Source of the DNA: an uncultured Planktomarina sp.
GTDB taxonomy: Bacteria; Pseudomonadota; Alphaproteobacteria; Rhodobacterales; Rhodobacteraceae
Assembly (NCBI GenBank): GCA_943788425.1
Contig: CALSQF010000001.1
Coordinates: forward strand, 186,001-250,000
Reading direction: 5' to 3'
Length of the DNA stretch: 64,000 nt
Shown here: in pieces, positions 3,100 to 42,224 of the stretch
How the letters are laid out: each line of letters starts with the position of its first letter
Numbering within the stretch: the first letter of the stretch is position 1
Translations under genes and position numbers: made by a program
The notes under the pieces: model-generated
Seen by the model: only the letters and a program-made list of their open reading frames with translations
Told to the model about the DNA's origin: nothing
Database searches by the model: none

Positions 3100-3254
3100 T
3101 TTGAAACCTCAAATTTAAGTGTCATGACGCTTCTAAGCATTTCTTCGGCCACAAGACGTTAATTTCCGCCACTTCGGACGGGAAAACGACATAAGGCGTA
3201 AAATCTTCTCTTTCCTTGGGTTGAACCTTTTTAACGGTCAGAATATCGGGGACT

Positions 3255-4811
3255 ATGGAAAATATGCATCAAAAATTACTTATCATCGACTTTGGCAGTC
3301 AGGTTACGCAACTCATCGCACGGCGTTTGCGCGAGCTTAATGTCTATTGCGAAATTCATCCGTTTCAGAATGTAACAGAAGATTTTTTGACGCAGTTTGC
3401 GCCGAAGGCTGTGATCTTGTCGGGCGGGCCTGCCTCAGTGATTGACGAAGGCTCTCCGCGCCCTCCAATGGCTGTATTTGAGATGAGTATTCCAGTTTTA
3501 GGAATTTGTTATGGCCAACAGGTGATGATGCAATGCCTGGGCGGCAAAGTGGAGCGCGGACATGGTACAGCCGAATTTGGTCGCGCCTATGTGAGCCCAA
3601 AAGCCCCATTGGGCCTGCTGGACGGTTGGTTTGAAGACGGCGATGAGCAGGTCTGGATGAGCCATGGCGATCATGTCAGCGCCATTGCGGCGGGGTTCGA
3701 GGTTTACGGAACCTCGCCCAATGCGCCATTCGCGGTCACAGCAGACCCGGCCCGCGAATTTTACGCTGTTCAATTCCATCCAGAAGTACATCACACCCCC
3801 AAAGGGGCGCAACTCTATGAAAATTTCATTCGTCGAGCCGGATTTGTTAGGGATTGGACCATGGGAGCTTATCGCGAGCAGGCATTACAGGCGATCCGCG
3901 ATCAAGTTAGGAATCAAAAAGTGATTTGCGGCCTTTCAGGTGGCGTTGACAGCTCTGTTGCGGCGGTTTTGATCCACGAGGCGATTGGCGACCAGCTGAC
4001 ATGTGTTTTTGTCGACCATGGCTTGCTGCGCGAAGGTGAGGCCGATGAGGTCATCGGTATGTTCCGCGATCACTATAATATACCATTCATCCATGCGGAT
4101 GAAAAAGAGCTCTTTCTTGGCGCTCTTGATGGTCAATCCGATCCGGAAACCAAGCGAAAGATCATCGGTAAGCTGTTTATCGACGTGTTCCAAAAACATG
4201 CCTCGGATGTTGGAGGCGCCAAATTCCTGGCTCAGGGCACCCTATACCCTGATGTCATTGAGAGTGTTAGCTTCTCAGGCGGACCGTCGGTGACCATCAA
4301 GTCACATCACAATGTCGGCGGATTGCCTGAAAAAATGGGCTTGAGCTTGGTTGAACCTCTTCGTGAGCTGTTCAAAGATGAAGTGCGGGCCTTGGGTCGC
4401 GAGTTGGGCCTACCCGCGTCTTTCATCGGTCGCCATCCCTTTCCTGGCCCCGGCCTTGCAATCCGCTGCCCGGGAGAAATTACCCGCGAGAAACTCGAAA
4501 TTTTGCGCCGCGCCGATGCGATTTATATCGATCAAATTCGTAAGCACGGTCTCTACGACGAGATCTGGCAAGCTTTCGTCGCGATCCTGCCTGTTCGCAC
4601 CGTCGGCGTTATGGGCGACAGCCGAACTTATGACTTTGCCTGTGCACTGCGGGCTGTCACGTCTGTCGACGGGATGACCGCAGACTATTATCCGTTTTCC
4701 CATGAATTCCTTGGCGAAACCGCCACGCGCATTATTAACGAAGTGCAAGGCATCAACCGAGTGACCTATGACATCACTTCCAAGCCTCCGGGTACGATTG
4801 AGTGGGAGTAG
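3255..4811 (+). CDS. guaA: GMP synthase (glutamine-hydrolysing)
   Basis: 518 residues, normal length. It converts XMP to GMP using ATP and glutamine in the cytoplasm. The N-terminal class I amidotransferase domain has its nucleophile in LGICYGQQ (C85) and its His/Glu pair in FHPEVH (H175, E177). The ATP-pyrophosphatase P-loop SGGVDSS is at about 228-234, and the C-terminal dimerisation domain ends PPGTIEWE, as is typical. ATG at 3255 follows a GGGGA site. The gene is divergent from the mttB-like gene over a 155-bp gap. Its 3' end is a known integration target for genomic islands, and an integrase remnant lies just downstream. Confidence 0.97.
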
Positions 4812-4821
4812 TTATTTAATT

Positions 4822-4855
4822 ATAAGTCATTGATTTAATTTATTTAGTGACTTAT
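4822..4855 (+). terminator. Weak stem-loop after guaA
   Basis: Inverted repeat ATAAGTCA / TGACTTAT (8 bp) with an 18-nt AT-rich loop, 10 bases after the guaA stop, followed by ACTTTTGTTT. It could act as a terminator. The AT-only character and long loop make this weak. Confidence 0.3.
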
Positions 4856-4972
4856 ACTTTTGTTTCACATAAAAAATCAGTCGTTGATTTAATTGAGGTT
4901 TTCGCGTTCAGTTACACAGAATGTTGCACAAACGTGTGACTACTGAAAATCATAGTAACTCTGCGAGCAAAC

Positions 4973-5194
4973 TTGGCACTGAAGAAACAGCAATTCGCAG
5001 AAGGCGAAATAGCCATATTTGACGAGGCTTGTATCTACAAGCGAGCTGAGTATTGGCAGTTTCGTATATGGTTGCCAAAAGAAAAAAAGTACGCACGTAA
5101 AAGCCTACGCACACGCAGTGAAGCGAGTGTTACGTGGGTACGTTGGCTATATGTGCAGTATGACGGCGACAGAGCGTCACACACAACTTTGTAA
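4973..5194 (+). pseudogene. Truncated phage-type tyrosine integrase, N-terminal remnant
   Basis: From a TTG start the reading frame gives ALKKQQFAEGEIAIFDEA, then IYKRAEYWQFRIWLPKEKKYARKS, cut here into motifs. This resembles the N-terminal arm-binding region of phage integrases found in marine alphaproteobacteria. Similarity stops near 5127 (after SLRTRS). No core-binding or catalytic domain follows, and the frame ends at 5194. It lies 160 bp past the guaA stop in the same direction, the usual place for an integrase of a guaA-targeting island. I infer that it is the scar of an excised or degraded island. A second open frame reaching 5267 is not recognisable. Confidence 0.6.
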
Positions 5195-5275
5195 AGAATT
5201 TGGGTTCACCGCCGGAATGTTGCAAGGCGTATTGGCCAAGGGCCGCAATCGCGCCCCCAAAACCTAAAGTACTTC

Positions 5276-5302
5276 ATAAGGCGGAGATTTTCTCCGCCTT
5301 AT
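5276..5302. terminator. Strong 12-bp perfect hairpin
   Basis: ATAAGGCGGAGA, a TTT loop, then TCTCCGCCTTAT: a perfect 12-bp stem in the stretch between the integrase remnant and the DMT transporter gene. There is no U-tract on the plus side, so it may be a terminator lacking a tail or an mRNA-stabilising hairpin. Confidence 0.5.
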
Positions 5303-5399
5303 GCTGTCTGAGGCTACGGAACGGCCCAACTTCGTTTTGTGGCTTGCGTAGGGCGGATTTATGTCATTGGGTTGGCCAAGATTGTAAGAGGCTTGCAAA

Positions 5400-6248
5400 A
5401 TGAACAACCGCCGTGCCGCGCTGTGGATGATTGGTGCTATTTTCTCTTTTACATCAATGGCCATCGCTGGCCGGGCAATATCCGGGCAACTCGATACGTT
5501 CGAGATTATGTTCTATCGTTCCATTATGGGCTTTTTAATCGTTCTCGGCGTGGCGAAATCTGTGGGCACGCTAGGCGAAATAGACCTCAAGTATTTTCGC
5601 CTTCACCTTCTGCGCAACATATTTCATTTCATCGGGCAAAATCTTTGGTTCTTCGCCTTACCGTTAATTCCATTGGCGCAATTATTCGCGCTTGAATTTA
5701 CCTCACCCATCTGGGTTTTACTACTAGGCCCGTTAATTTTAGGCGAAAGTTTAACGCTTCGCAAATTGGCGATTGCGGCCTTGGGGTTCATCGGCGTTTT
5801 AATCGTCGCTCAACCGGAAATAGGTGCGGTGAACATCGGAATATTAGCCGCCGGCTCTGCCGCCATTGGCTTTGCAGGCGCGGCAATTTTGACTCGCAAG
5901 CTTACGGAACAAAACTCATTGACCAAAATCTTGTTTTTTCTCACTGGGTTACAAATTCTCTTTGGGTTGCTTTGCGCCGGTTACGACGGGGATATCGCCC
6001 TGCCCCAGCTAGCCACGGTGCCTTGGCTTATCGTGATTGGCGCCACCGGGCTGGCCGCACATTTTTGCATGACGAAATCTCTATCTTTGGCTCCGGCGAG
6101 TCTGGTGATGCCTGTCGATTTTGCACGCCTGCCATTGATAGCGGTCATCGGCGTTGTGTTTTATGAAGAGAGCCTAGATCTCTACCTGGTTCTTGGTGCT
6201 GTATTGATTTTGGTGGCCAATTACCTAAATCTTAAACGCCAAGCCTAG
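5400..6248 (+). CDS. DMT-superfamily (EamA) transporter
   Basis: 282 residues, almost entirely hydrophobic, with the two tandem EamA repeats of about five helices each that define drug/metabolite transporters. It acts in the inner membrane as an exporter or importer of a small metabolite that cannot be named from sequence. The start ATG follows AAGAGG at a good distance. The C-terminus ends in the usual short basic tail (NLKRQA). It is probably transcribed on its own or with the P-loop gene 64 bp downstream. Confidence 0.88.
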   Translation: MNNRRAALWMIGAIFSFTSMAIAGRAISGQLDTFEIMFYRSIMGFLIVLGVAKSVGTLGEIDLKYFRLHLLRNIFHFIGQNLWFFALPLIPLAQLFALEFTSPIWVLLLGPLILGESLTLRKLAIAALGFIGVLIVAQPEIGAVNIGILAAGSAAIGFAGAAILTRKLTEQNSLTKILFFLTGLQILFGLLCAGYDGDIALPQLATVPWLIVIGATGLAAHFCMTKSLSLAPASLVMPVDFARLPLIAVIGVVFYEESLDLYLVLGAVLILVANYLNLKRQA

Positions 6249-6312
6249 CGCAAGGTCTTTTCCAATCGACCATATTGGCCTATGATAAAATTGAAGCTTG
6301 GGATTATAAGCC

Positions 6313-7203
6313 ATGATTTATGAAAACGGCGCACAATGGGCCGGTGCCAAACAGAAAAAAGCCCTGCTGTTTGCAATGTCGGGTCTGGGAAAAACCCATA
6401 TATCTTCCATACTGCGCCACCGAGGGAATTGGTTTCATTACTCGATAGATTATCGCATCGGCACGCGCTATATGGGCGAGCATATTGTTGATAACTTCAA
6501 GAAAGCCGCCATGGCTGTGCCTTTTTTGGCTGAGTTATTGCGCTCAGACTCTATTTCTATGTCCTCGAATATTACCTTTGAGAACCTTGCGCCGCTATCC
6601 ACATATTTGGGAAAACCGGGCGATGTGTCAAAGGCCGGCATTCCATTTGATGATTATTGCAACCGCCAAGCGCAACATCACGCTGCCGAGCGCGCCGCGC
6701 TTTTGGATACGCCTCACTTCATTGAGCGGGCCAGTGATCTTTATGGTTATGACAACTTTATCTGCGACAGTGGAGGCTCGATTTGTGAAGTTGTCGATCC
6801 TTGGGATGCGGCCGATCCGATTTTAACCGCCCTATCGGATAACCTGCTGATGATCTGGATTGCCGGCAGTGAGGATCACACGGCCGAATTGGTGCGGCGC
6901 TTTGATTTGGCGCCAAAACCTATGTGCTATCAGCCGGAATTTCTCATGACCTGTTGGTCGGACTATAAGCGCGAAACAGGCGCTCAGCCCGATAAGGTGA
7001 ATCCCGATGATTTCATCCGCTGGACCTATGCGCGCGCCATGGCCCATCGCCAGCCACGGTATGCGCAGATGGCCAAATGGGGCATTACGCTTCAAGCCAA
7101 TGATGTGCAAAATTTAAAGACGCCTCAGGATTTCGAAGCTCTGGTGGCCGAAACCCTAGACCACCACGCCGCAGCATCGCGATCCAATGGCGGCAAGGAC
7201 TGA
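6313..7203 (+). CDS. P-loop ATPase/kinase-like protein upstream of metA
   Basis: 296 residues with an N-terminal Walker A-like [11 protein letters not shown] at about residues 21-31, a possible Walker B-type [11 protein letters not shown] near residue 150, and no membrane segments. It resembles conserved Rhodobacteraceae proteins annotated only as ATPase. Its stop lies 5 bases before the metA ATG, so the two are almost certainly co-transcribed and perhaps coupled. A role tied to methionine or homoserine metabolism is suggested only by this linkage. I cannot assign a substrate. Confidence 0.75.
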
Positions 7204-7208
7204 ACTTT

Positions 7209-8126
7209 ATGCCAATTAAGATTCCCGCAAATCTGCCCGCCCACGATGTTCTGAGCGCCGAAGGTGTGATGGTCATGGACCCCAGCCAGGCAGACCGCCA
7301 AGACATCCGTCCACTCCGCATCGCATTGCTCAACCTCATGCCGCTCAAAATTCAGACGGAAAATCAATTTGCCCGCCTCATTGGGGCAACCCCGTTGCAG
7401 ATTGAACTCACCCTCTTGCGGATGACGAGCCACCAAACAAAAAACACCTCCTCCGATCATATGGAGCAATTTTATAAAGCCTTCAGCGCGGTTCGGAATG
7501 AAAAATTTGATGGGTTGATCATCACCGGTGCGCCGATTGAGCATTTGGATTTCCAAGACGTCACCTATTGGCCAGAAATGGTGGAGGTGATGAAATGGAC
7601 TCAAAGCCATGTGCATGCCACCTTGGGGGTCTGCTGGGGCGGCATGGCGATGATCAATCACCTGCATGGGGTAAAAAAACATGATTTGCCGCAGAAGGCT
7701 TTTGGCTGTTTTCGACACCAAAACTTAGACCCCTCCTCGCCTTATTTGCGTGGGTTTTCAGATGATTTCGTGGTGCCCGTCAGCCGCTGGACAGAGATGA
7801 AGCAGGATGAAATTGCCGCTGTGCCGGGTCTCAAAACCCTGCTTGGGTCGAGCGAGACTGGTCCTTGTTTGGTAGAGGATTCGGCCCATCGCGCGCTGTA
7901 TCTCTTCAATCATTTTGAATATGATAGCAATACGCTCAAACAAGAATATGACCGCGACACTGCCAATGGCACCCCCATCAATATACCGGGTCATTATTAT
8001 CCCGGGGATGATCCCAGACAAACGCCCCTCAACCGCTGGCGCTCGCATGCGCATCTTTTCTATGGCAATTGGATCAATGAAATCTACCAAACGACGCCTT
8101 TTGATCGCAACGAAATAGGCCGCTAA
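7209..8126 (+). CDS. metA: Homoserine O-acyltransferase (MetA family)
   Basis: 305 residues, full length. It acylates homoserine with succinyl- or acetyl-CoA as the first committed step of methionine synthesis. The catalytic Cys142 (GVCWGGM) and the His235/Glu237 pair (FNHFEY) fall at exactly the positions known for the family. Which acyl donor is used cannot be decided by eye. An AAGGA lies upstream of the ATG. I looked for a SAM-II riboswitch ahead of metA or of the upstream P-loop gene and saw none I could support. Confidence 0.95.
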
Positions 8127-8176
8127 ATTTTCTGGACTGCAACCCTGCCTTTGGGCGAAGGTGGATTGGATCCACG

Positions 8177-8791
8177 ATGCAAATACGCAGATATCATCAC
8201 GGCAACTTGCGTCAAGCTTTGGTGGACGCCGCGCTTTTGTTGATTGAAACCAAAGGCCCAACCGGCTTTACCCTATCGGAAGCGGCCAAGAATTCCGGCG
8301 TAACACTAGCCGCCGTCTATCGCCATTTCGAGGGCCGCGAGGATCTGATTGCTGAGGCCGCATTGCAGCGCTTTGCCATTTTTGCCGAGTGCATGGAAAC
8401 CGCCTATAACGGTCGACACCCCAACGCACTTAGTGCCTTCGAGGCGACCGGCCAGGCTTATTTGAATTTTGTCCGCACGCACCGCGGCCCTTACGTCGCC
8501 ATGTTTGAAAGTGGCCTACCGCGTCAACCCAGCCCCGAGCTCAATCACGCCGCGATGGAGGCGCAAAAGGTTCTGCAAGCCGCGGCAGTGGAGCTGAGCA
8601 AGCATATCCCAGCGGAAAAACGCCCACCACCGCAGATGTTCGCTGCCCATATCTGAGCACTCAGCCACGGGGTGGTCGAGCTGTTTGCCCGCGGCGTACC
8701 CGGCGGGCGCAGCCCTATTCCGGCCGAGCAACTGCTTGAAAGCGGCATGGGCATCTATCTGCGCGGCTTGGGTCTCATTGCTCCGGATTGA
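8177..8791 (+). pseudogene. TetR-family regulator interrupted by a nonsense codon
   Basis: The first 159 residues give a TetR helix-turn-helix (GFTLSEAAKNSGVTLAAVYRHF, in two parts) and most of a WHG-type C-terminal domain. A TGA at 8654-8656 stops translation after FAAHI. Reading through gives ALSHGVVELFARG and a natural end at 8791, so one TGG-to-TGA change (Trp to stop) explains the break. The truncated product keeps the DNA-binding domain but lacks about 45 residues of the dimerisation/ligand domain. The neighbouring MAPEG gene converges with it. Confidence 0.75.
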
Positions 8792-8800
8792 TCGAATGCG

Positions 8801-9187
8801 CTAAAGCGCCACGATCAGCAAGCTGACAGAAATATTGATCAAAGCCAAAAGCGTCAACACCATACCGCCAAAGCGAAGCGGCATGTTAAACTCCATAAAG
8901 CCAAAGCAAACCCCATGCATGACCCGCCCCAGTAATAGCAAGGCACCGGTGATGTGAAGCCGCAGCGGCGAGAGTTCTGCAGCTTCTGCCAAATACATCA
9001 TCAGCAAGACCATTGGGACATATTCAATAAAATTTCCGTGCGCGCGCACGGAGCGTTCTAATGCCTGCGCTCCAAAGTTGTTAAAGGCCAGCCATTTTAA
9101 CAGGGTGACGCCTCGGAGCGCCAAAACGCGGAAGGTCAAAATGGTGAAAAACAAGCCCAAAAGCGAAGCGTAAAATGCAGTGATCAT
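8801..9187 (-). CDS. MAPEG-family membrane protein
   Basis: 128 residues with four predicted transmembrane helices. The MAPEG core is visible (FNNFGAQALERSVRAHGNFIEYVPMV, read in two parts) with the conserved R-x-H-x-N-x-x-E pattern. MAPEG proteins are inner-membrane, often glutathione-dependent, proteins; the bacterial substrates are mostly unknown. It has its own promoter region, shared with the divergent SDR gene (about 160 bp gap). The product length is normal for the bacterial branch. Confidence 0.88.
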   Translation of the reverse strand: MITAFYASLLGLFFTILTFRVLALRGVTLLKWLAFNNFGAQALERSVRAHGNFIEYVPMVLLMMYLAEAAELSPLRLHITGALLLLGRVMHGVCFGFMEFNMPLRFGGMVLTLLALINISVSLLIVAL

Positions 9188-19637: not shown

Positions 19638-21384
19638 ATGTCAGAGACATCCGCCACTTTCGATTACGTCATCATTGGCGGCGGCACTGCCGGCTGCTTG
19701 CTGGCCAACCGCCTAAGCGCGGAGCCAAACCATCGGGTCTTATTGCTCGAAGCGGGCAAAACAGACAGCTACCCGTGGATTCACATCCCCGTCGGTTATC
19801 TATATTGTATTGGTAATCCGCGCACAGATTGGCTGTATCACACAGAACCCGACGCGGGCCTAAACCATCGTGACACAGCGCTATCCACGCGGCCGGGTAT
19901 TGGGCGGATGCTCCTCGATCAACGGCATGATCTATATGCGCGGCCAAGCGCGAGACTATGACGCTTGGGCGACATTGACGGACGATGACAGCTGGTCTTG
20001 GCACAACGCACTTGCCGATTTCAAAGCCCATGAGAATCACTACCGACTAGATCAAGGCGCCGATCCGATGACTGGGGACAACAGCCGATTTTCAGATATG
20101 CACGGCTCCGGCGGCGAATGGCGTATAGAAAAACAACGTCTACGCTGGGATGTGCTGGATAGTTTTGCCGATGCCGCCGAGCAGGCCGGGATTGAAAAAA
20201 TCGACGATTTCAACGCCGGTGACAATGCCGGTGTCGGTTATTTTGACGTCAATCAACGCTCCGGTTGGCGTTGGAGCAGCTCTAAGGCATTTTTGCGCCC
20301 AGCACGGTCACGACCCAATTTGACAATCTGGACCGAAGCACAGGCAAAAAAACTCACCTGGTGCAGCGGAGACGATGGCCAGCTGCGGTGTACAGGCCTA
20401 TGCGTGATGCGCGGGGGGCAACCTGTCCTTGTCACAGCAAAGCGCGAGGTGATCTTGTCTGCCGGCGCAATCAATTCGCCACAAATCCTACAACTCTCCG
20501 GAATTGGTCCAGCAGATTTGCTGCGATCCCATGGGGTTGAGGTGATCCACGATGCGCCGGTGGGGGAAAACCTGCAAGACCACCTACAAATCCGTGCGGT
20601 GTTCAAAGTCAATGGTACTCAAACACTCAACACTCTGGCCAATAGCCTATTTGGGAGGTTTAAAATCGGTGCGGAATACCTGCTGAACCGCTCAGGCCCG
20701 ATGAGCATGTCCCCCAGTCAATTGGGCGCCTTCACCCGCTCAGATCCCGCCCGACCCCACGCCAACCTCGAATACCATGTGCAGCCTTTGAGCTTAGAGG
20801 CCTTTGGCGAAGATCTCCATGATTTTCCCGCCATCACCGTCAGCGTCTGTAATCTCAACCCAACCAGCCGTGGCAAGGTGCACATCAGCTCCGCCAATTT
20901 CCGAGATCCGCCTAAAATTATGCCAAACTACCTCAGTACCGCTGAAGATCGACAAGTTGCGGCCGACAGCCTGCGTCAAGCGCGGCGCATTATGGCGCAA
21001 CCGGCAATGCAGAACTACGCGCCAGAAGAATTTAAACCGGGGGTGCAGCACCAAAGCGATGAAGATTTGGCACGGCTCGCAGGCGATATCGCCAATACAA
21101 TATTTCACCCGGTAGGTACTGTAAAAATGGGCCGTATGGACGACCCCTCAGCGGTTCTAGATCCGCAGCTGCGTGTTAAAGGCGTGCAAGGGCTGCGCGT
21201 GGTCGATGCCAGCGTCATGCCAACCATCACCAGCGGCAACACCAATGCCCCCACCCTGATGATCGCCGAAAAGGCCGCCGCCTGGATACGAGAGGGCCGT
21301 GTGAGCCGCGTCGCAAATTTGCCGCCGCGACCCGGTGGACAATCGGCGAAATTCTTGATTATCTCGACATCTCAGACAGTCTGA
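19638..21384 (+). pseudogene. GMC oxidoreductase (choline/alcohol dehydrogenase type), one frameshift
   Basis: GMC-family flavoenzyme. The N-terminal FAD motif DYVIIGGGTAGCLLANRL precedes the break. After it come RYPRGRVLGGCSSINGMIY (GMC signature 1), SAGAINSPQILQLSGIGP (signature 2) and the C-terminal catalytic His/Asn region FHPVGTVKMG and GNTNAPT. Frame is lost at about 19878, between NHRDT and RYPRG; removing one G restores it. The product would be about 580 residues. The substrate (choline, an alcohol or an aromatic) cannot be set. The last 30 residues run almost into the truncated tRNA, so the C-terminus may have been altered by the insertion. Confidence 0.8.
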
Positions 21385-21396
21385 ACTGTATGGTTT

Positions 21397-21467
21397 GGGG
21401 AGGTGCCGGAGTGGTCGAACGGGACGGATTCGAAATCCGTTGTACCTGCAAGGGTACCCAGGGTTCG
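21397..21467 (+). pseudogene. Truncated tRNA-Ser(CGA), left attachment site (attL)
   Basis: The first 71 nt of a tRNA-Ser gene: acceptor 5' strand, D arm, anticodon arm with CGA, long variable arm and the start of the T loop (GGGTTCG). After 21467 the sequence changes to CCGACTCAAAA and the T arm and acceptor 3' strand are missing. Bases 21400-21467 are identical to 29891-29958 in the complete tRNA-Ser. Position 3 differs (G here, A there). It cannot make a functional tRNA. Confidence 0.85.
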
Positions 21468-21530: not shown

Positions 21531-22373
21531 ATGACAAACATCACAAACTTTCTGAACAAGCATGCTGCCTACATTTGGGACACAACTGACCTGCACCATA
21601 AGGAAAGTACTGCAAAACTGAAGGTATTTTTAGATTTTGGTGACAATGCTGATAAACGGTTGGATGAAATCAGCGGGGCTGACATACTTGATTTCTGCCG
21701 CTGGCTAAAAGAGACACGAGGTATATCAGACAATACTATCAATCATTATCGTTCAGCCCTGAGCAGGTTCTTTAATTATGCCAAAGATTATTTGGACCTA
21801 CCAAAAATTCCAAACATCAAATTTGTTAAAGTTAAGAACCAGCGTGTGCGCTTTTATAGCCGCTCTGAAGTCAAACAAATCAGAGAATATCTGGCTGGCC
21901 ACAAACACGCATGGCTGCTGCCAATGTTTAACATCGGTATCAATACAGGAATGCGCCTCAGTGAGATATTGCGTGTTCGACAAAAGGACGTGGTGTTCAT
22001 AAATGATGTCCGTCATGTACGTTTAACTCACACGAAAAACGGAGACCGCCGAAACGTTCCACTTAGCGATGACGCTTTTAACGCATTTGAAGCGTTAAAC
22101 TGGAACGCAGAGACCATGTTTATTGAGGGTGCACATTATTATGCTTGGAAAAATATCAGGCTAAATATTTGTGATGGCGACAAGTCTGCTGTTTTCCATT
22201 GTACCCGCCATACCGCAGCTACCGTGATGGCTAACGAGATGAACATTAATCATCTGTTAATTGGCGCTATGCTTGGTCACAAAGACCCCTCGAGCACGAT
22301 GAAATATGTTCACACCAATCCAAATACGATGGGGACGATTGCTGCACGTCTTGCAGATATTATCAATTCTTGA
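21531..22373 (+). CDS. int: Tyrosine-type site-specific integrase
   Basis: 280 residues. The N-terminal SAM-like core-binding domain covers about residues 1-95. The catalytic domain has the first Arg in NTGMRLSEI, Lys in THTKNGDRR, H-x-x-R in FHCTRHTAAT, His in LGHKDPSS and the nucleophile in MKYVH. All catalytic residues are present, so it may still be active. GAGAC precedes the ATG. It is transcribed away from the truncated tRNA at the left end and is the obvious agent of the insertion. Codon use is AT-rich like the rest of the element. Confidence 0.93.
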   Translation: MTNITNFLNKHAAYIWDTTDLHHKESTAKLKVFLDFGDNADKRLDEISGADILDFCRWLKETRGISDNTINHYRSALSRFFNYAKDYLDLPKIPNIKFVKVKNQRVRFYSRSEVKQIREYLAGHKHAWLLPMFNIGINTGMRLSEILRVRQKDVVFINDVRHVRLTHTKNGDRRNVPLSDDAFNAFEALNWNAETMFIEGAHYYAWKNIRLNICDGDKSAVFHCTRHTAATVMANEMNINHLLIGAMLGHKDPSSTMKYVHTNPNTMGTIAARLADIINS

Positions 22374-22881: not shown

Positions 22882-23205
22882 TTAAGCATTAGCTGGCACG
22901 TATGCCTTCATAATACGCTGCGCCGCTGCTACTACTGGCCCGTTATCGATACACTCATGAACTTCTAAACTTGCAAAAGTACCAGATGCGTGAGCTGCAG
23001 CCATAACACCCATCGCTGTCGCAGCATCAGGGACATTAAAATCAACAATAATGTCCATTCTACCACGCATAAAACTTGCAAAATTAACGCTACCACCAGC
23101 GGCTTCAGCAACCGTTTTGACTGCAGCCATCCGGTCAGAGCCACCAATTATACCCTTAGCGCCCTCTGCGTTATAAGAACCCATCATTATGCATCGAATT
23201 GACAT
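22882..23205 (-). CDS. GYD-domain protein
   Basis: 107 residues from the ATG at 23205 (MSIRCIMMGSYNAEG), chosen because a strong AGGGAGG site lies just upstream; an ATG ten codons earlier lacks one. The sequence follows the GYD pattern: a first strand, then NAEGAKGIIGGSDRMAAVK, GGSVNFASFMRGRMDII and a final strand. GYD proteins are small ferredoxin-fold proteins of unknown role. This is the first gene of a two-gene cargo unit on the element. The composition is less AT-rich than its flanks, which may mean a recent bacterial origin. Confidence 0.72.
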   Translation of the reverse strand: MSIRCIMMGSYNAEGAKGIIGGSDRMAAVKTVAEAAGGSVNFASFMRGRMDIIVDFNVPDAATAMGVMAAAHASGTFASLEVHECIDNGPVVAAAQRIMKAYVPANA

Positions 23206-23370: not shown

Positions 23371-23583
23371 TTTGAATATAAGTGGGGTCACGCACCGAAT
23401 GTTCCCGTGACGAAACTGATGGAACGCTATGGCAAAGAGATAACGGTCAAGGAAGTCATAAAGAAAGCCAGATGCTCCAACTATGGACAAAAAAACAGCT
23501 TCGAATTTCGAATTATCTATATTGGCGGCAGTTATAACGCGATGCTGGGCGGAACTACCAAGCCCAAAAAACCTAATTCGTAA
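23371..23583 (+). pseudogene. C-terminal remnant of a conserved phage/island protein
   Basis: The open frame has no start codon but reads WGHAPNVPVTKLMERYG, KEITVKEVIKKARCSNYG and FEFRIIYIGGSYNAML before a TAA at 23583. I recognise the VPVTKLMERYG...VKELIKRARC pattern from small zinc-binding proteins common in alphaproteobacterial mobile regions. The N-terminus, with the first CxxC, is missing, and the expected second CxxC is CSNY, with one cysteine lost. It overlaps the end of the convergent secreted-protein gene by 11 bases. Probably a dead fragment. Confidence 0.5.
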
Positions 23584-23875
23584 CCGATCTCGATTTTACA
23601 CAATAAATGTCGCTATTATCACCGCTGCGATAATCAATATGACGACACATATAAATCAGATCGTCAAAAGTCACTATAAATTTCACCACAGTTACATACC
23701 TATCAGTGCGATTATCATCTAGTTGCGTACTAAGTATTTTGCCCTGCGCTAAAACTATTTCTGGATTGGGGTGAAAGGGTTCGTTTGCTGTGCGAGGCCA
23801 TATCAATGTTTCGTTCGCCATCGCAGATGTAGCCAAAATTAAGCAAACAAAAATTGAACCAATAATCCTTTTCAT
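23573..23875 (-). CDS. Secreted/periplasmic hypothetical protein
   Basis: 100 residues. A signal peptide is clear: MKRIIGSIFVCLILATSAMA, with cleavage after AMA. The mature part has about 80 residues with two cysteines (MCRHID, IYCVKS) that could form a disulfide. A very strong AGGAGG precedes the ATG. No family is recognised. It lies between the remnant at 23371 and the terS-like gene and is oriented against the phage genes, so it looks like a cargo gene with its own promoter. Confidence 0.65.
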   Translation of the reverse strand: MKRIIGSIFVCLILATSAMANETLIWPRTANEPFHPNPEIVLAQGKILSTQLDDNRTDRYVTVVKFIVTFDDLIYMCRHIDYRSGDNSDIYCVKSRSVTN

Positions 23876-24313: not shown

Positions 24314-24484
24314 TCACTTAAATGTTTCCCAAAAACTCCAAACAACGACAGAAAATACGACACCACTAATTATCCAAGCAAACGCATAAAAGCGTTTCGA
24401 TTGTGACGAGTTTAGACTCCCGCAATTTAAACATTCCTTAGTATCAACGAATGAAAATTTCTTACACGAGTTACAGGTGGGCAA
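24314..24484 (-). CDS. Zinc-ribbon single-pass membrane protein
   Basis: 56 residues from a TTG at 24484 (PTCNSCKKFSF); a GGAGG lies 8 bases upstream, which decides this start over an earlier in-frame TTG at 24499. A two-knuckle zinc ribbon is visible (CNSC ... CLNC), followed by one membrane helix (about residues 34-50). It is an inner-membrane protein with a cytoplasmic zinc ribbon, function unknown. It is inserted antisense between the terminase small and large genes, where T7-like phages carry lysis genes. Confidence 0.6.
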   Translation of the reverse strand: MPTCNSCKKFSFVDTKECLNCGSLNSSQSKRFYAFAWIISGVVFSVVVWSFWETFK

Positions 24485-24529
24485 AACAGACGCCTCCAAT
24501 TAGAATAGCTATAACTAGAACAGGTAGAT

Positions 24530-26259
24530 ATGTTTAAAGCAACAACGTCGCTCGGTATTACGATAGCGAAAGACCCACTCTCAGATTTCAGAAAGTTTCT
24601 GTTCGTTATCTGGAAGCATCTTAACCTCCCCGACCCTACGCCAGTTCAGTATGATAAAGCTTATAACCTACAACACAGCGACAAGCGAATGATTATTCAA
24701 GCATTCAGAGGGGTGGGCAAATCTTGGATTACTTCAGCCTACGTCGTCTGGCTGCTCTACATGAACCCGCAGTTAAACATTTTGGTCGTCTCAGCGTCTA
24801 AATCTCGCTCTGATGACTTCACCACTTTACTCTAAGGCTCATCAGCGAGATGGACATCCTGGCACACCTGAGGCCAAAGACGGACCAGAGACAGTCGAAG
24901 ATTAGCTTTGATGTAGCCCCTGCTGCAGCGTCTCACGCACCCTCAGTGAAATCTGTGGGTATCTCAGGTCAATTGGCTGGCTCACGAGCAGATGTAATCG
25001 TCGCAGATAACATCGAAGTCCCAAACAACTCCATGACCCAAGGTATGAGAGATAAGCTCTCAGAGGCTGTGAAGGAGTTTGACGCTATTCTTAAACCAGA
25101 TGGGCGTATCATCTACCTTGGGACACCACAGAACCAAGAGAGTTTGTATAACAAGCTACCCGACCGTGGATACAAGGTCAGTATCTGGCCAGCACGATAC
25201 CCGAACGCTGACCAAACTGTTGGCTACGATTCAAAGTTAGCCCGTCTTATCTCAAATGCTATGGCAGCAAATGATTTACTTGTAGGTGAACCCACAGACC
25301 CTGCCCGTTTCTCCGAGTTTGACCTATTGGAACGTGAAGCATCCTACGGACGCTCAGGTTTTGCACTGCAGTTTATGCTCGATACGAGACTCTCTGATGC
25401 CGAAAGATACCCTCTCAAGGTGTCTAACCTAATCGTGATGGATATACCCCCTCAGGAGGCCCCTGAGAAGGTCTCATGGTCATCTGACAGCCAGTATATC
25501 GTAGAAGAATTGCCGAACGTGGCATTCAACGGAGACCACTACCATAAGCCTATGTTCATGAGTTCTGAGTTCGTAGAATACACTGGCTCGGTCATGAGTA
25601 TTGACCCCTCAGGACGCGGTAAGGATGAGACAGGCTACGCAGTCGTAAAGATGCTCAATGGTTATCTATACGTCCGTAGATGCGGTGGCATCGCTGTTGG
25701 CTATTCAGAGGAAGCACTCAAGAAACTTGCAGTCATCGCCAAGGAAGAACAGGTCAACGAAATCATCGTCGAGAGTAACTTCGGTGATGGGATGTTTAAC
25801 CAGCTGTTTATGCCTGTGTTGAACAAGGTCCATCCTGTCACGACGAGTGAAGTTCGTCACAATAAGCAGAAAGAACGCCGCATCATCGATGTTCTTGAGC
25901 CTGTGATGAACCAGCATCGTCTGGTCATCGATAAGAAGGTCATCCAGAAGGACTTCGACAGCTGCCAACACCTACCCCCGGAGCAGGCTCTTCGTTACCA
26001 GTTGATGTACCAGCTGACCCGCCTGACGGCCGACAGAAGCGCTCTGACGAATGATGACAGACTGGATGCGCTTGCTATGGCCTGTCAGTATTGGGTCGAT
26101 GCAATGGCTCAGGATGCCGAGCAGCGCATAGGTGCACGTCGGGAAGAACTGATGAGTGTTGAGCTAGACCGACTGCGTGAGCAGGCGTCCTTAGGTTTCG
26201 CTTTAATTACGGGTCACCAGAGTGAGAAGACCAACACCACCACTAGCCTTAGATGGTAG
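24530..26259 (+). pseudogene. T7-type phage terminase large subunit, one frameshift
   Basis: Large terminase (DNA maturase B) of podoviruses. The ATPase N-terminus has Walker [10 protein letters not shown] at about residue 60 and [14 protein letters not shown], where frame is lost (about 24828, one base missing). The other frame resumes [15 protein letters not shown] and carries on with VIVADNIEVPNNSMTQ (Walker B region), the nuclease motif SIDPSGRGKDETGYAV and a DDRLDALAMA metal site. Corrected length is about 576 residues. Packaging without a capsid gene makes no sense for a stand-alone phage, so the gene is a relic or once served a satellite. Confidence 0.82.
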
Positions 26260-26473
26260 GCAACTTAATCTCTGCTAGCAGCTCATCTGATGGCAAACAA
26301 TTCGTTATAATCTCAGCTAGAAGCTCACCTGACGGCAATAGTTTGTTCGTTTCATCGATAAACTGCATTTTACGTCCATATTTTATTGCCTCGCACAGTG
26401 TGCCTGATGGTACCCGTGTTTCACAATGCGCTATTACTGCTTCAAAGTTCAAAAACTCTTGGTGTATGGTCAT
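26249..26473 (-). CDS. Small protein with an internal repeat
   Basis: 74 residues. An AAGGAG ribosome site precedes the ATG. The C-terminal half holds a tandem repeat, LLPSGELLAEI then CLPSDELLAEI, and the first part has the related VPSGTLCEAI, so three copies of a short PSxELLAEI helix unit. Its 3' end overlaps the terL end by 11 bases on the opposite strand. It is one of three leftward genes preceded by the ACTATAGGT box. No family is recognised. Confidence 0.5.
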   Translation of the reverse strand: MTIHQEFLNFEAVIAHCETRVPSGTLCEAIKYGRKMQFIDETNKLLPSGELLAEIITNCLPSDELLAEIKLPTI

Positions 26474-26551
26474 TGGAATTGCTCCTTTGACTAGTATTAC
26501 GGGGAAGTACTAAAATTAGATTACTTCTATGCTGCGACATTTGAGACCATC

Positions 26552-26590
26552 CTGAGTGATGACTATAGGTCGACCTATAGGTCTGGTGCC
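26552..26590. promoter_or_regulatory. ACTATAGGT box, copy 1, with 18-bp perfect palindrome
   Basis: It contains CTATAGGTCGACCTATAG (26563-26580), a perfect 18-bp palindrome, within a 40-bp box shared with 27223 and 29199. It is 79 bp upstream of the start of the leftward 74-aa gene. The symmetry suits a dimeric repressor. The core CTATAGG also recalls T7-type phage promoters. Confidence 0.55.
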
Positions 26591-26771
26591 TCTCATGTAA
26601 AAACCCTTATAAATAAGACCAATTTCAATTGTTGCACTTAAAGATAAGCGGAGGGGGAACATATACCTATAGTTTTCCCTAAAGCTATCCCCAGAAATGT
26701 AGATAAAGGTATGACATCGACAGCATCAATCCATAGATGAACTATTAGTAGAACTTTAGTTTAACCTGTAG
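26552..26771. repeat. Diverged direct repeat, copy A
   Basis: A 220-bp segment repeated at 27223-27440 with clear similarity over its full length. Shared blocks include ACTATAGGT, ATAAATAAGACCAATTT, ACCTATAGTT, CCCTAAAGCTATCC, CTATTAGTAGA and AACCTGTAG. It lies upstream of the leftward gene at 26473. No coding frame is convincing in it. The ACTATAGGT and its inverted partner ACCTATAGT are 103 bp apart in both copies. Confidence 0.85.
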
Positions 26772-26807
26772 CCCCACCAAAAAAAGACCAGCCACAGACT
26801 CGTAAGT

Positions 26808-27122
26808 TTAGCCTAGTTCGGCTTTTGCCTGCTGACGACGTTCTCTTTCTTCGAAGCTCAAAGCCACGGATGTGCGGATGCCTTTACCCACAAAGTCCAT
26901 CATGCCGGAGACAACACGCTCATTGGAGTCAATCCCTGCGCAAGACAGAACTTCGCAGCCATCACGAGAGCGCGCCCATCGAGCGATTTTCTCGGGGCCA
27001 TTGCCATATTCCTTTTCATCCTCAACCGCGTCATCTAATGCGGCCAGTACGACTGCTGAAAATAATTTACGGGCGCGTTTACCCTGCTCGTGGATAAACT
27101 GCCCGTCGTCGAAATCATTCAT
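26808..27122 (-). CDS. Conserved hypothetical protein (DUF6280-like)
   Basis: 104 residues from the ATG at 27122 (MNDFDDGQFIHEQGKR), chosen for its AAAGGA site; an upstream ATG at 27152 lacks support. Conserved features are ARKLFSAVVLAALDDAV, GNGPEKIARWARSRDG, LSCAGIDSNERVVSGMM and a charged tail. I recall near-identical Rhodobacteraceae proteins under DUF6280; the number is from memory and uncertain. No catalytic motif is evident; it looks helical and cytoplasmic. It lies between repeats A and B and is the second gene behind the ACTATAGGT box. Confidence 0.65.
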   Translation of the reverse strand: MNDFDDGQFIHEQGKRARKLFSAVVLAALDDAVEDEKEYGNGPEKIARWARSRDGCEVLSCAGIDSNERVVSGMMDFVGKGIRTSVALSFEERERRQQAKAELG

Positions 27123-27222
27123 CTCAAATCCTTTTAGTTCACGGTGTAGCAATTCTAGCGCGCATCATCGCCAATGGAGGTAGATGGCTGAAGGTTCAAC
27201 CTAAAAGTTTTGGCGTAAAAAT

Positions 27223-27262
27223 CTGAGGTGGTAACTATAGGTTGACTTATAGGACTGGTGCC
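27223..27262. promoter_or_regulatory. ACTATAGGT box, copy 2
   Basis: CTGAGGTGGTAACTATAGGT followed by TGACTTATAGG and ACTGGTGCC. It is an imperfect version of the palindrome in copy 1, located upstream of the DUF6280-like gene. Confidence 0.5.
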
Positions 27263-27440
27263 GCTGTTGTAAAAACCTCTATAAATAAGACCAATTTTGA
27301 AGGTTTCCCTATAGGTTAAACGGTGGGGGAACTTATACCTATAGTTCTCCCTAAAGCTATCCTCATAAATGTGGATAAAATGGCAAGGGAGGGCCAAATC
27401 CATAGTAGAGCTATTAGTAGACCTTTAGTTCAACCTGTAG
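27223..27440. repeat. Diverged direct repeat, copy B
   Basis: Second copy of the 220-bp repeat, 101 bp upstream of the leftward gene at 27122. It has one extra CCCTATAGGTTAAAC not seen in copy A. The many substitutions but near-constant length suggest an old duplication kept by selection on its sites. Confidence 0.85.
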
Positions 27441-28297
27441 AGATAGGGGCGGATGACTAACAAGCTGCGGTCACCCACAGTTGCTATTCATCCAACGATG
27501 TGCGCTTGCCGCAAAACAAACACCAATCTCCCCCGGAGAAGAAAATAGCTATGAGCCATTTCCGAGTTAGATAGTGGTTCGACTTTTGGTGATTTCAAGG
27601 AAAAAAACGCCAGCCACTCATTTAGAGAAAGCTGGCCAGTACACCCTGTAATTGACCCTGGGAATGGGGTTACTGGGTGATACCTCGAGGGGTACGTTTA
27701 AGTTTTGAATATGGTTTAAATATGAGGCAAAACAATTGCTGGCAATGCGCCAATCAAAAAGGCAAACTATGGATAATTGCGCAGCCCTTAAGCAGTTTAA
27801 AGTATATCGCCATTAATTTAGGCGAAAAAATGTGAGGGGGTTACGTGTAATGGTCTCTGGCAAAAATCCCCCATGCTCCGCTCGGGCTGGAAGACGCGGT
27901 GTATCGACCAAATAATTGGGGCCAAAATACAATCCCATCGCTATTACAAAACAATATGCCCCAGCCAAAATGTCAAAATTAGTATTATCATAAATAATGA
28001 CACAAATTTGTTATAAACAATATGGGATTTTCGACGCTCATCCAAAATTTTTTTGGTCTTTACAGCTCCTCTATCATTTTAGAACCTACAGTAATGCGCT
28101 AGTTTCCTACTATGCTACCTCTACAGACCAAAAGATGGCTTATCGTCAGCGCATTGCTAATCTTAACGCTTGGTCTTGCCCTGCTCTTAAAAATGTACGG
28201 GATACTCATGCCCAGCGTCGTCATATAATTGGGTGTTTTAAACAAAAAATAACACCAAAGTCATTAACCCAACTACAAACTTATCTGATGACTACTT
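27441..28297. other. AT-rich region without a recognisable complete gene
   Basis: An 857-bp stretch. The only protein-like piece is a minus-strand frame at 27813-27938. A 115-codon plus-strand frame (27997-28344) has no family resemblance and poor composition. A 6-bp stem, GCCAGC/GCTGGC, lies near 27610. I see no tRNA or CRISPR array. Confidence 0.5.
27813..27938 (-). pseudogene. Possible C-terminal gene fragment
   Basis: 41 residues from an internal ATG, with GLYFGPNYLVDTPRLPARAE then GGFLPETITRNPLTFFRLN. The frame is open about 40 further codons upstream without a start. The composition is more protein-like than its surroundings. It has no ribosome site and no recognised family, so it may be a scar of a deleted gene. 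Confidence 0.25.
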
Positions 28298-28381
28298 TTA
28301 TATTAATTCCAAGATTTTTGAGACGAAGTCACTGGGTAAAATAGCAACGAAAAGAACGATGCAAGCTAACATGAGTTTCAT
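28298..28381 (-). CDS. 27-aa hydrophobic microprotein
   Basis: MKLMLACIVLFVAILPSDFV and seven more residues. One hydrophobic helix follows a single Lys, like a tiny membrane peptide or a signal peptide with no mature part. AGGGGG precedes the ATG at a good distance. It sits just downstream of the AsnC-type gene (30-bp gap) on the same strand. The resemblance to toxin-like membrane peptides is superficial. Confidence 0.35.
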   Translation of the reverse strand: MKLMLACIVLFVAILPSDFVSKILELI

Positions 28382-28411
28382 TGGAATCGCCCCCTAAATA
28401 CATTGTGTTAA

Positions 28412-28648
28412 TCAGAACGCTTTAAAAGTTTGGATCGTGTAAGTGCGCTCGATTCCATCAATATTGAGCAAATTGTCATTTATAAACATACCAATATCCT
28501 CGCCATTTGGCACATAAAGCTTCATCATCAAATCAAAATCGCCACTGGTGGAATAAAGCTCTGAATGAATTTCGCGCATGACGATTTGCGCCGCGACTTC
28601 ATAGGCAGTGCCGGGCCGACAACGTATTTGTACAAAAAGACAAGTCAT
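28412..28648 (-). CDS. Stand-alone Lrp/AsnC ligand-binding (RAM) domain protein
   Basis: 78 residues covering only the effector-binding domain of Lrp/AsnC regulators, with the pattern REIHSELYSTSGDFDLMMKL and IDGIERTYT. There is no helix-turn-helix. Such stand-alone RAM proteins are common in Rhodobacteraceae and probably bind amino acids and modulate full-length partners. It looks like a bacterial rather than phage gene although it lies inside the tRNA repeats. The ATG at 28648 has AAAGGTAA upstream at a long distance. Confidence 0.8.
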   Translation of the reverse strand: MTCLFVQIRCRPGTAYEVAAQIVMREIHSELYSTSGDFDLMMKLYVPNGEDIGMFINDNLLNIDGIERTYTIQTFKAF

Positions 28649-28828
28649 CGTAAATCCATTACCTTTAAGGTTCTAATTAAAAAACCACACTCATTTTACC
28701 AAACAGTACATGCAGCTGATTTTGCTAATCGCTCGCGGTGATAGCAGACGTCCAAAATGTATAAACTGAGCTTAGCATATGCCATCAAGTTTTAAACAGG
28801 GCTATTTTTAGCTTAATATACGGAATAA

Positions 28829-29029
28829 TCAGCCCTCTTTTTCAGCTTTTTTACGCGCGAGTTTACGTTGACGGCTAAGTCCTTCTTTTGCCTGACGAGC
28901 CTTTTTCTCAGATGGTTTTTCGAAATGCTGCTTGAGCTTCATTTCACGATACACACCTTCCCGTTGCAGCTTTTTTTTCAAGGCCCTAAGAGCTTGGTCA
29001 ACATTATTATCACGAACACTTACTTGCAT
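28829..29029 (-). CDS. rpsU: 30S ribosomal protein S21
   Basis: 66 residues from the ATG at 29029 ([19 protein letters not shown]), the family start; the frame is open upstream. It is a typical alphaproteobacterial bS21, with [11 protein letters not shown] and a basic tail ending KKAEKEG. It binds the 30S platform near the anti-Shine-Dalgarno region and affects mRNA selection. The ribosome site is weak (GGTGGTAAG). It lies inside the integrated element with the ACTATAGGT box 170 bp upstream. Aquatic phages are known to carry bS21, so it may be cargo rather than the host copy. Confidence 0.93.
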
Positions 29030-29198
29030 TGTCTTACCACCATATTTGACAGTTGCCGCAAGCTTCATTGCATTAATTTTCAACCAAATCAAATCTAATA
29101 TGAACACTAGAGAAATTTTCAAACCTATAAGACAAATTGCGTGACCAGACGCCTTTAGGTTTTGCCGTTATTGGAGGCACCAGAAGAAGACAACTTAT

Positions 29199-29238
29199 CT
29201 TAGGTGCTAACTATAGGTTTAACTGTAAGTCTGAGTCC
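29199..29238. promoter_or_regulatory. ACTATAGGT box, copy 3, upstream of rpsU
   Basis: CTTAGGTGCTAACTATAGGT followed by TTAACTGTAAG and TCTGAGTCC. It matches copies 1 and 2 over 40 bp but the rest of the 220-bp repeat is absent. Confidence 0.5.
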
Positions 29239-29836: not shown

Positions 29837-29887
29837 TTCAGAATCCGTTTGATATGAGAAAGTCACTTGAAGGCAAACTTCATGTGC

Positions 29888-29977
29888 GGAGAGGTGCCGG
29901 AGTGGTCGAACGGGACGGATTCGAAATCCGTTGTACCTGCAAGGGTACCCAGGGTTCGAATCCCTGTCTCTCTGCCA
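29888..29977 (+). tRNA. tRNA-Ser(CGA), complete; right attachment site (attR)
   Basis: 90 nt including CCA. Acceptor GGAGAGG pairs with TCTCTCT (G1-U72 and G7-U wobbles). Anticodon stem ACGGA/TCCGT with loop TTCGAAA gives CGA, reading UCG. It has a long serine-type variable arm (GTACC TGCAA GGGTAC) and T arm CAGGG TTCGAAT CCCTG. The first part (to 29958) is the element-borne copy of the repeat, so the tRNA is rebuilt with a 5' half and promoter supplied by the element. Confidence 0.95.

Positions 29978-37884: not shown

Positions 37885-42224
<4,340 letters not shown>

What the first reader, a model, noticed from the sequence alone, without database searches (positions are those of the whole stretch)
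26552..29238. A shared 40-bp ACTATAGGT box stands before three leftward genes, one of them rpsU
Near-identical boxes lie at 26552-26590, 27223-27262 and 29199-29238. On the minus strand each is upstream of a start codon: 79 bp before the repeat-bearing 74-aa gene, 101 bp before the DUF6280-like gene and 170 bp before rpsU. The first contains the perfect 18-bp palindrome CTATAGGTCGACCTATAG. A fixed 9-mer is expected about once or less in 64 kb on both strands, yet ACTATAGGT (either strand) occurs five times within 2.7 kb. This looks like a small regulon on a mobile element that includes a ribosomal protein. I know of no description of it.
Basis: partly seen in the sequence, partly recalled or inferred. 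Interest (0 to 1): 0.72.

Follow-up and report, generated by a model that had tools for sequence, protein, structure and literature searches.

The report
Phage genome-end repeats, not a regulon
The shared boxes look like the edges of copied pieces of a T7-like virus's genome end, carried by a small virus-derived element that sits in a tRNA gene of a marine bacterium together with a spare ribosomal-protein gene.

Summary
In detail: three near-identical boxes; exact ACTATAGGT 5 times against 0.06 expected. The reading changes. Boxes 1 and 2 begin a ~220-bp direct repeat. A related region lies directly behind the terminase gene (terL) in 22 of the 79 other terL-bearing viral contigs held, though in none of six related phage isolates as a whole. 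All six isolates share its promoter-like motif and four its CTATAGG repeats. Further downstream many phages have a conserved site resembling the T7 terminal-repeat boundary; box 2 matches it. Everything sits in an ~8.5-kb element between a partial and the intact tRNA-Ser: integrase, terS/terL, bS21, DUF6280, Lrp-like and GYD genes, no recognised head, tail, polymerase or replication gene. Two congeners show the site empty, two carry the same reduced element, and a viral contig supplies a matching attP. I read it as a satellite-like derivative of a temperate Autographivirid. Whether it still moves is open: none of the three genomic copies has both integrase and terL intact.

The parts
21397..21467 (+). 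attL: 71-bp partial copy of tRNA-Ser(CGA), element boundary
   Evidence: 98.6% to 29888-29958; 68/68 core at 21400 and 29891
21531..22373 (+). tyrosine integrase (280 aa, open here)
   Evidence: PF00589 1e-18; 3 of 20 genus genomes; 88% relative beside a tRNA-Ser-type att in viral contig L314
22564..22872 (-). u102, unknown 102-aa protein
   Evidence: no Pfam, PHROG, PADLOC or NCBIfam hit; kept in G003 and G001
22882..23205 (-). GYD-domain protein
   Evidence: PF08734 8.2e-11; 0 nonsynonymous differences in three pairwise comparisons
23573..23875 (-). s100, unknown 100-aa protein
   Evidence: no Pfam or PHROG hit; 95% relative near a major head protein in contig L319
24091..24309 (+). terS, T7-type small terminase
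   Evidence: PF11123 2e-18
24314..24499 (-). u61, unknown small ORF
   Evidence: also in G003, L148, L105, L320; phrog_14275 of unknown function 1.8e-4
24530..26259 (+). terL, T7-type large terminase, split into two frames here
   Evidence: PF22530 1.6e-40; ORFs 24530-24835 and 24850-26259; intact in G003
26249..26473 (-). u74, repeat-bearing 74-aa gene
   Evidence: 92% relative at the same place in viral contig L314
   Evidence: HMM matches behind terL in viral contigs; this copy was one of the three HMM seeds
26808..27122 (-). DUF6280 cargo gene
   Evidence: PF19796 2.2e-40; another copy elsewhere in the genome
27216..27237 (+). site matching the conserved phage end site and the T7 terminal-repeat boundary; overlaps box 2 (27223-27262)
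   Evidence: TAAAAATCTGAGGTGGTAACTA
27221..27440 (+). module 2: second copy of the phage right-end region
   Evidence: this copy was one of the three HMM seeds
28412..28648 (-). Lrp/AsnC ligand-binding-domain protein
   Evidence: PF01037 2.4e-11
28829..29029 (-). rpsU (bS21), second copy
   Evidence: PF01165 4.6e-17, phrog_21469 5.7e-14; other copy at G000:C4:115579
29197..29238 (+). box 3: short relic of the start of a module
   Evidence: (E 0.021)
29888..29977 (+). attR / intact tRNA-Ser(CGA)
   Evidence: ARAGORN; empty sites in G011 and G002

Best explanation
The boxes are the left edges of duplicated copies of the right-end control region of a temperate T7-like (Autographiviridae) roseophage, carried by a reduced ~8.5-kb derivative of such a phage inserted in tRNA-Ser(CGA). 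In the phages the order is terL, short CTATAGG-type repeats with a probable phage-polymerase promoter (the place of T7 phiOR), then, often a few hundred bases on, a conserved site resembling the T7 terminal-repeat boundary, where terminase probably cuts. Shown: homology and position of the module, its promoter-like motif, the boundary-like site, the att / attP / empty-site set and the shared reduced layout. Inferred: terL 3'-end relics and the end site share the stretch AATCTGAGGTGGT, and unequal recombination there copied the module and left cargo genes (u74, DUF6280, bS21) each behind a copy. Inferred and less sure (about 0.4): a related infecting phage replicates and packages the element through these end modules. 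The stated confidence is for the identity of boxes and element, not for present mobility.
For: The intact G003 copy of TerL is 77.6-79.5% identical to six Roseobacter Autographiviridae isolates. CTATAGG lies from 20 bp before to 500 bp behind the terL stop in 52 of 62 distinct regions, 5.23/kb against 0.10/kb in the rest of the same loci; 50 of 60 without satellite-like L105 and L148; 4 of 6 isolates. The module HMM, seeded with both window copies and L107, hits 22 terL loci besides L148 (L107 itself, and satellite-like L105 and L164, among them), at -15 to +218 bp from the terL stop. TTAGGTTGCACCATAG (0-3 mismatches) recurs at five matching gene positions in three isolates, one of them behind terL; a core of it lies behind terL in 44 of 62 regions against 1 of 620 controls, 6 of 6 isolates. 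An AATCTGARKKG-type pattern lies downstream in 30 of 62 against 0 of 285 controls, 4 of 6 isolates, and resembles T7's AAAAATCTGAGTGACTA just before its 160-bp terminal repeat. In G006, module, DUF6280 and a phage-type end site follow each other. att set: window, G003, G001, contig L314; empty G011 and G002. Recent exchange: dS 0.04-0.05 (int) and 0.00-0.05 (s100) against 0.24-0.40 for host rpsI/rplM.
Against: The module HMM hits none of the six CRP isolates nor the T7 ends at E up to 1: whole-module homology rests on metagenomic contigs. CRP-113 and CRP-171 have no CTATAGG behind terL. The promoter motif is degenerate in both window modules. terL is split here, in L148, G001 and L320; G003 has intact terL but a stop in the integrase. 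No attP form of the element found in viral contigs (exact pattern only). dS of terL and Lrp against G003 (0.24) is host-like, and terL 0.68 and terS 1.09 against G001 exceed host values: the element is a mosaic. 7-mer spacing in phages is most often 10-11 bp and in T7 13, not the 12 bp of the boxes. The phages' physical ends are not mapped here; the boundary is by analogy. 32 of 62 regions lacked the end-site pattern; some records end before it could be reached.
Confidence: 0.8

Rival explanations
1. Inert remnant: a deleted T7-like prophage that no longer moves; the boxes are fossils of phage ends with no present function. This shares the identity of the boxes with the best explanation and competes only with the idea of present mobility.
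For: None of the three genomic copies has both integrase and terL intact. Window promoter motifs are degenerate. One incomplete prophage, in IMCC1909, was the only one reported in the host group (PMC10675870, passages). An older degraded copy stands beside the newer one in G001. No excised form found.
Against: The same reduced layout in three genomes with int and s100 dS far below host genes; tandem integration in G001; GYD and bS21 without amino-acid change between the three; promoter motif kept with 2 mismatches in one module each of G003 and G001.
Confidence: 0.45
2. Regulon: a host or element protein binds the palindromic box and controls u74, DUF6280 and rpsU together.
For: Boxes precede these genes at 79-170 bp here, and module matches precede u74-like or rpsU genes in G003, G001, L105 and L314.
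Against: The conserved unit is ~220 bp and follows terL in viral contigs where none of those genes was found. The palindrome is perfect only in box 1. No promoter excess. No regulator identified. In G006 DUF6280 has a phage end site and no box in front.
Confidence: 0.08
3. Iterons or a replication origin of an integrated plasmid-like element.
For: Short direct repeats in arrays.
Against: No replication gene recognised among 19 ORFs scanned in the element; arrays sit behind terL in phages.
Confidence: 0.03

Closest known systems
T7 right end: gene 19 - phiOR - short repeats - terminal-repeat boundary
   Same: Order behind terL; 7-mer repeats of CCTAAAG/CTATAGG type; AAAAATCTGAGTG at the boundary.
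   Different: Different promoter sequence and repeat spacing; module HMM does not hit T7; in the window the region is duplicated and separated by cargo genes.
Roseobacter Autographiviridae phages (CRP-113, -171, -114, -125, -227, -361; PMC11092137, passages)
   Same: TerL 77.6-79.5% identical to the G003 copy; integrase annotated in the four records read whole; promoter-like motif in 6 of 6, end-site pattern in 4 of 6.
   Different: Records of 38.9-40.4 kb described as complete genomes; the window element lacks recognisable RNA polymerase, replication, head and tail genes; the full module is not found in them.
PICMIs (PMC10803314, passages)
   Same: Small marine integrated element without recognised capsid genes; packaging as head-length concatemers would suit an 8.5-kb unit.
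   Different: PICMIs integrate next to fis in Vibrionaceae and encode three core excision/replication proteins; here terS/terL and phage end modules are kept and the origin is a T7-like phage. No transduction shown.
Tycheposons / VEIMEs (only named in the PMC10803314 passages; other details recalled)
   Same: Marine integrated islands with cargo, reported to be packaged.
   Different: No tycheposon- or VEIME-specific gene was tested; virion packaging not shown here.
Phage-encoded bS21 (PMC9723584, PMC6375957; search listings and abstract starts only)
   Same: An extra bS21 gene on a phage-related element.
   Different: Sits in a reduced integrated element in a genome that has another rpsU copy; close to the host protein.

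Membership tests
Autographiviridae (T7-like) prophage | T7-type terminase | tested here: met
   PF11123, PF22530; G003 TerL 77.6-79.5% to CRP phages
Autographiviridae (T7-like) prophage | single-subunit RNA polymerase | tested here: not met
   CRP-114 RNA polymerase finds nothing in G000 at E 0.001 (no positive control, genome 93% complete); none among 19 ORFs scanned
Autographiviridae (T7-like) prophage | head, tail and replication genes | tested here: not met
   none among 19 ORFs scanned between the att sites; not every small ORF was scanned
Phage satellite | integrase and att site | tested here: met
Phage satellite | lacks structural genes but keeps cis packaging sequences of a phage | tested here: inconclusive
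   no structural gene recognised; end-region module and boundary-like site present, their packaging role is inferred
Phage satellite | induced and transferred by a helper | not testable with these tools
   no virion data; no attP form of the element in viral contigs
PICMI | integration next to fis | tested here: not met
   site is tRNA-Ser(CGA)
Tycheposon | family-specific recombinase and gene set | not tested
   no reference model on hand
Regulon operator | site conserved with its target genes and not explained otherwise | tested here: not met
   region conserved behind terL in viral contigs where the genes were not found

The most novel reading that the evidence does not exclude
A family of small satellites of T7-like roseophages that move between Planktomarina species, in which copies of the helper's genome-end module (polymerase promoter, short repeats, terminase boundary) bracket swappable host-derived cargo such as bS21, DUF6280 or a PsiE-like protein, so that the packaging signal doubles as the recombination site for cargo exchange.
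Probability: 0.35. Interest if true: 0.72.

Novelty: new variant of a known kind. Interest (0 to 1): 0.5.

Why it matters
It gives a sequence-based picture of the genome-end region of a marine phage group (the description of its isolates, PMC11092137, has no occurrence of 'terminal repeat' or 'promoter') and a likely T7-phage-derived satellite in a bacterial group reported to have almost no prophages (PMC10675870, passages). It shows a ribosomal-protein gene riding on a phage-derived element. It warns that repeated boxes before unrelated genes can be copied phage ends rather than operators.

Tried and rejected
Regulon, iteron and simple phage-promoter readings were weighed. CTATAGG alone is not the promoter of CRP-113: 3 hits in its genome, none behind terL. 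A 12-bp spacing shared with T7 was expected and not found: most often 10-11 bp in phages and 13 in T7. The module HMM missed all six CRP isolates and T7. The box pattern with up to 3 mismatches was found in 26 of 61 relatives; outside G000, G001 and G003 the hits were few, nearly all with 3 mismatches, and about as frequent as or rarer than the reversed-pattern control in most genomes, so the box is not a general motif. DUF6280 and u74 have no match in the phage isolate collection, nor has the repeat DNA. No convincing defence family among nine proteins, best E 0.035. Search for an attP form of the element: none. The first comparison of the window with L063 mixed in other loci by a file-reading slip; it was redone properly and is not relied on. 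In one search the rows for L315 and L316 were read in the wrong orientation and gave nothing; L063, L064 and serve instead. Papers: ten searches listed no description of this element or these boxes; the library holds open-licence papers only and listings were capped.
Full report
What was claimed and what is there. The three boxes exist at the stated coordinates and are far above chance. Boxes 1 and 2 are only the first part of a longer direct repeat: 152 nt at 82% and 44 nt at 89%, together 26549-26771 and 27221-27440. Box 3 shares only about 40 bp.

The surroundings. Between an oxidoreductase-type gene (19870-21384; GMC family by my reading, not searched) and tRNA-Ser(CGA) at 29888-29977 lie a tyrosine integrase, a GYD protein, unknown ORFs, T7-type small and large terminase, u74, DUF6280, an Lrp/AsnC ligand-binding protein and bS21. 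Of 19 ORFs scanned in Pfam and PHROGs none is a head, tail, polymerase or replication gene. A 71-bp copy of the tRNA stands at 21397-21467. In G011 and G002 the oxidoreductase gene and the tRNA are neighbours about 14 bp apart, an empty site; of the 20 genus genomes G000, G003 and G001 are filled, and the other 15 gave no clear answer in these two searches. terL is found in 3 of 20 genus genomes, G000, G003 and G001, and the integrase in the same 3 of 20. G001 carries two elements in tandem, the second degraded. Viral contig L314 has a matching att site (64 of 68 core bases, with arms like both sides of the window element) between two integrases, followed by a T7-type RNA polymerase.

What the boxes are. 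The intact G003 TerL is 77.6-79.5% identical to six Roseobacter Autographiviridae isolates and up to 97% (best segment) to viral contigs (176 relatives, best 80 kept); the 97% contig, L148, is the same element. An HMM seeded with both window modules and L107 hits 22 of the 79 other viral contigs, at -15 to +218 bp from the terL stop. L107 matches by construction and L105 and L164 are satellite-like, which leaves 19. It hits none of the six CRP isolates and not T7. CTATAGG is present around and behind the terL stop (-20 to +500) in 52 of 62 distinct regions; density 5.23 against 0.10 per kb. Of 86 loci, 79 gave a stop position, and 62 remained after short and identical regions were dropped; L105, L148 and five of the CRP records are among them. 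In isolates taken alone, 4 of 6 have CTATAGG there. In L107 the box runs across the terL stop codon, and boxes 2 and 3 still read as a terL-like end (LRW-stop, LRC-stop; my reading).

Promoter and boundary. CRP-113, -114 and -125 share TTAGGTTGCACCATAG with 0-3 mismatches at matching places: before the RNA polymerase gene, behind it, behind lysozyme, at the end of the PhoH gene ahead of the head genes, and behind terL. At up to 4 mismatches these genomes have 15, 12 and 9 hits against 4.0, 3.4 and 2.2 in shuffles, the rest scattered. Its core lies behind terL in 44 of 62 regions against 1 of 620 controls and in 6 of 6 isolates. That is the place of T7 phiOR (record position 39229, gene 19 ending at 39130). 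The window has no rightward hit; one module each of G003 and G001 keeps the motif with 2 mismatches. Further downstream stands AAAAATCTGARGTGSTA; a pattern for it is found in 30 of 62 regions against 0 of 285 controls and in 4 of 6 isolates, the other two records ending 530-543 bp behind terL. T7 has AAAAATCTGAGTGACTA immediately before its 160-bp terminal repeat, whose identity at both record ends I checked. Window 27216-27237 matches this site and its upstream context resembles that of CRP-113. In G006 a DUF6280 gene stands between a module match and a phage-type end site, with no box in front. [quoted passage not shown]

How it probably works. Shown: an integrated reduced element with copies of a phage's end region. 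Inferred: unequal recombination between terL ends and the end site, which share AATCTGAGGTGGT, duplicated the module and left cargo between copies. The cargo differs: DUF6280 here, a weakly PsiE-like protein (far below NCBIfam cut-offs) and a second terL fragment in G003. Inferred, about 0.4: a related phage mobilises the element. For: int dS 0.04-0.05 and s100 0.00-0.05 in comparisons with the window, against 0.24-0.40 for rpsI/rplM; GYD and bS21 without amino-acid change. Against: terL split here, in L148, G001 and L320; integrase with a stop in G003; degenerate window promoters; terL and Lrp dS host-like against G003 (0.24), and terL 0.68 and terS 1.09 against G001; no attP form of the element in viral contigs. 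s100 has a 95% relative near a head gene in L319, so part of the element is plain phage material.

Literature. PMC10675870 (passages) reports no prophage in the host group except one incomplete prophage in IMCC1909, probably this element; its table was not seen. PMC11092137 (passages) describes the phages, integrases in nine of ten, with no occurrence of 'terminal repeat', 'promoter', 'attP' or 'satellite'. PMC10803314 (passages) describes PICMIs. Tycheposon and VEIME details beyond those passages are recalled.

Verdict. It is a new variant of a known kind: a phage-derived, satellite-like element with duplicated phage ends.

Noticed in passing
window 29850-29977: After integration the intact tRNA-Ser(CGA) has its 5' flank from the element, so the element must supply or tolerate a new promoter for this tRNA.
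   Followed up: no
L067 7719-9046 (G006): Module match, DUF6280 and a phage-type end site lie next to tRNA-His in another genome of the genus: a fragment of a T7-like right end.
   Followed up: partly
L103 7900-8760 (G011): Remnant cluster u74 - bS21 - 61-aa ORF in a single-contig genome whose tRNA-Ser site is empty; no tRNA-Ser found in the held stretch.
   Followed up: partly
L063 12010-12504 (G003): Weakly PsiE-like membrane protein in the place where the window has DUF6280; matches lie far below NCBIfam cut-offs.
   Followed up: partly
L314 4209-6300 and L106 6354-8539: Viral contigs with two different tyrosine integrases side by side before the RNA polymerase.
   Followed up: no
L317 5717-6967: tRNA-Tyr, integrase fragment, terL 3' end and module match in an Ascidiaceihabitans contig: perhaps another reduced element.
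   Followed up: no
L063 about 2500-9000: In IMCC1909 other genes (sulfatase- and EamA-like among them, by reading the ORFs) lie between rpsI and tRNA-Ser, perhaps a second island beside the element.
   Followed up: no
G006:C2:556717-577372 and G017:C3:250178-272348: The oxidoreductase gene and tRNA-Ser lie about 19-21 kb apart in these two genomes, so something else may sit at the site.
   Followed up: no
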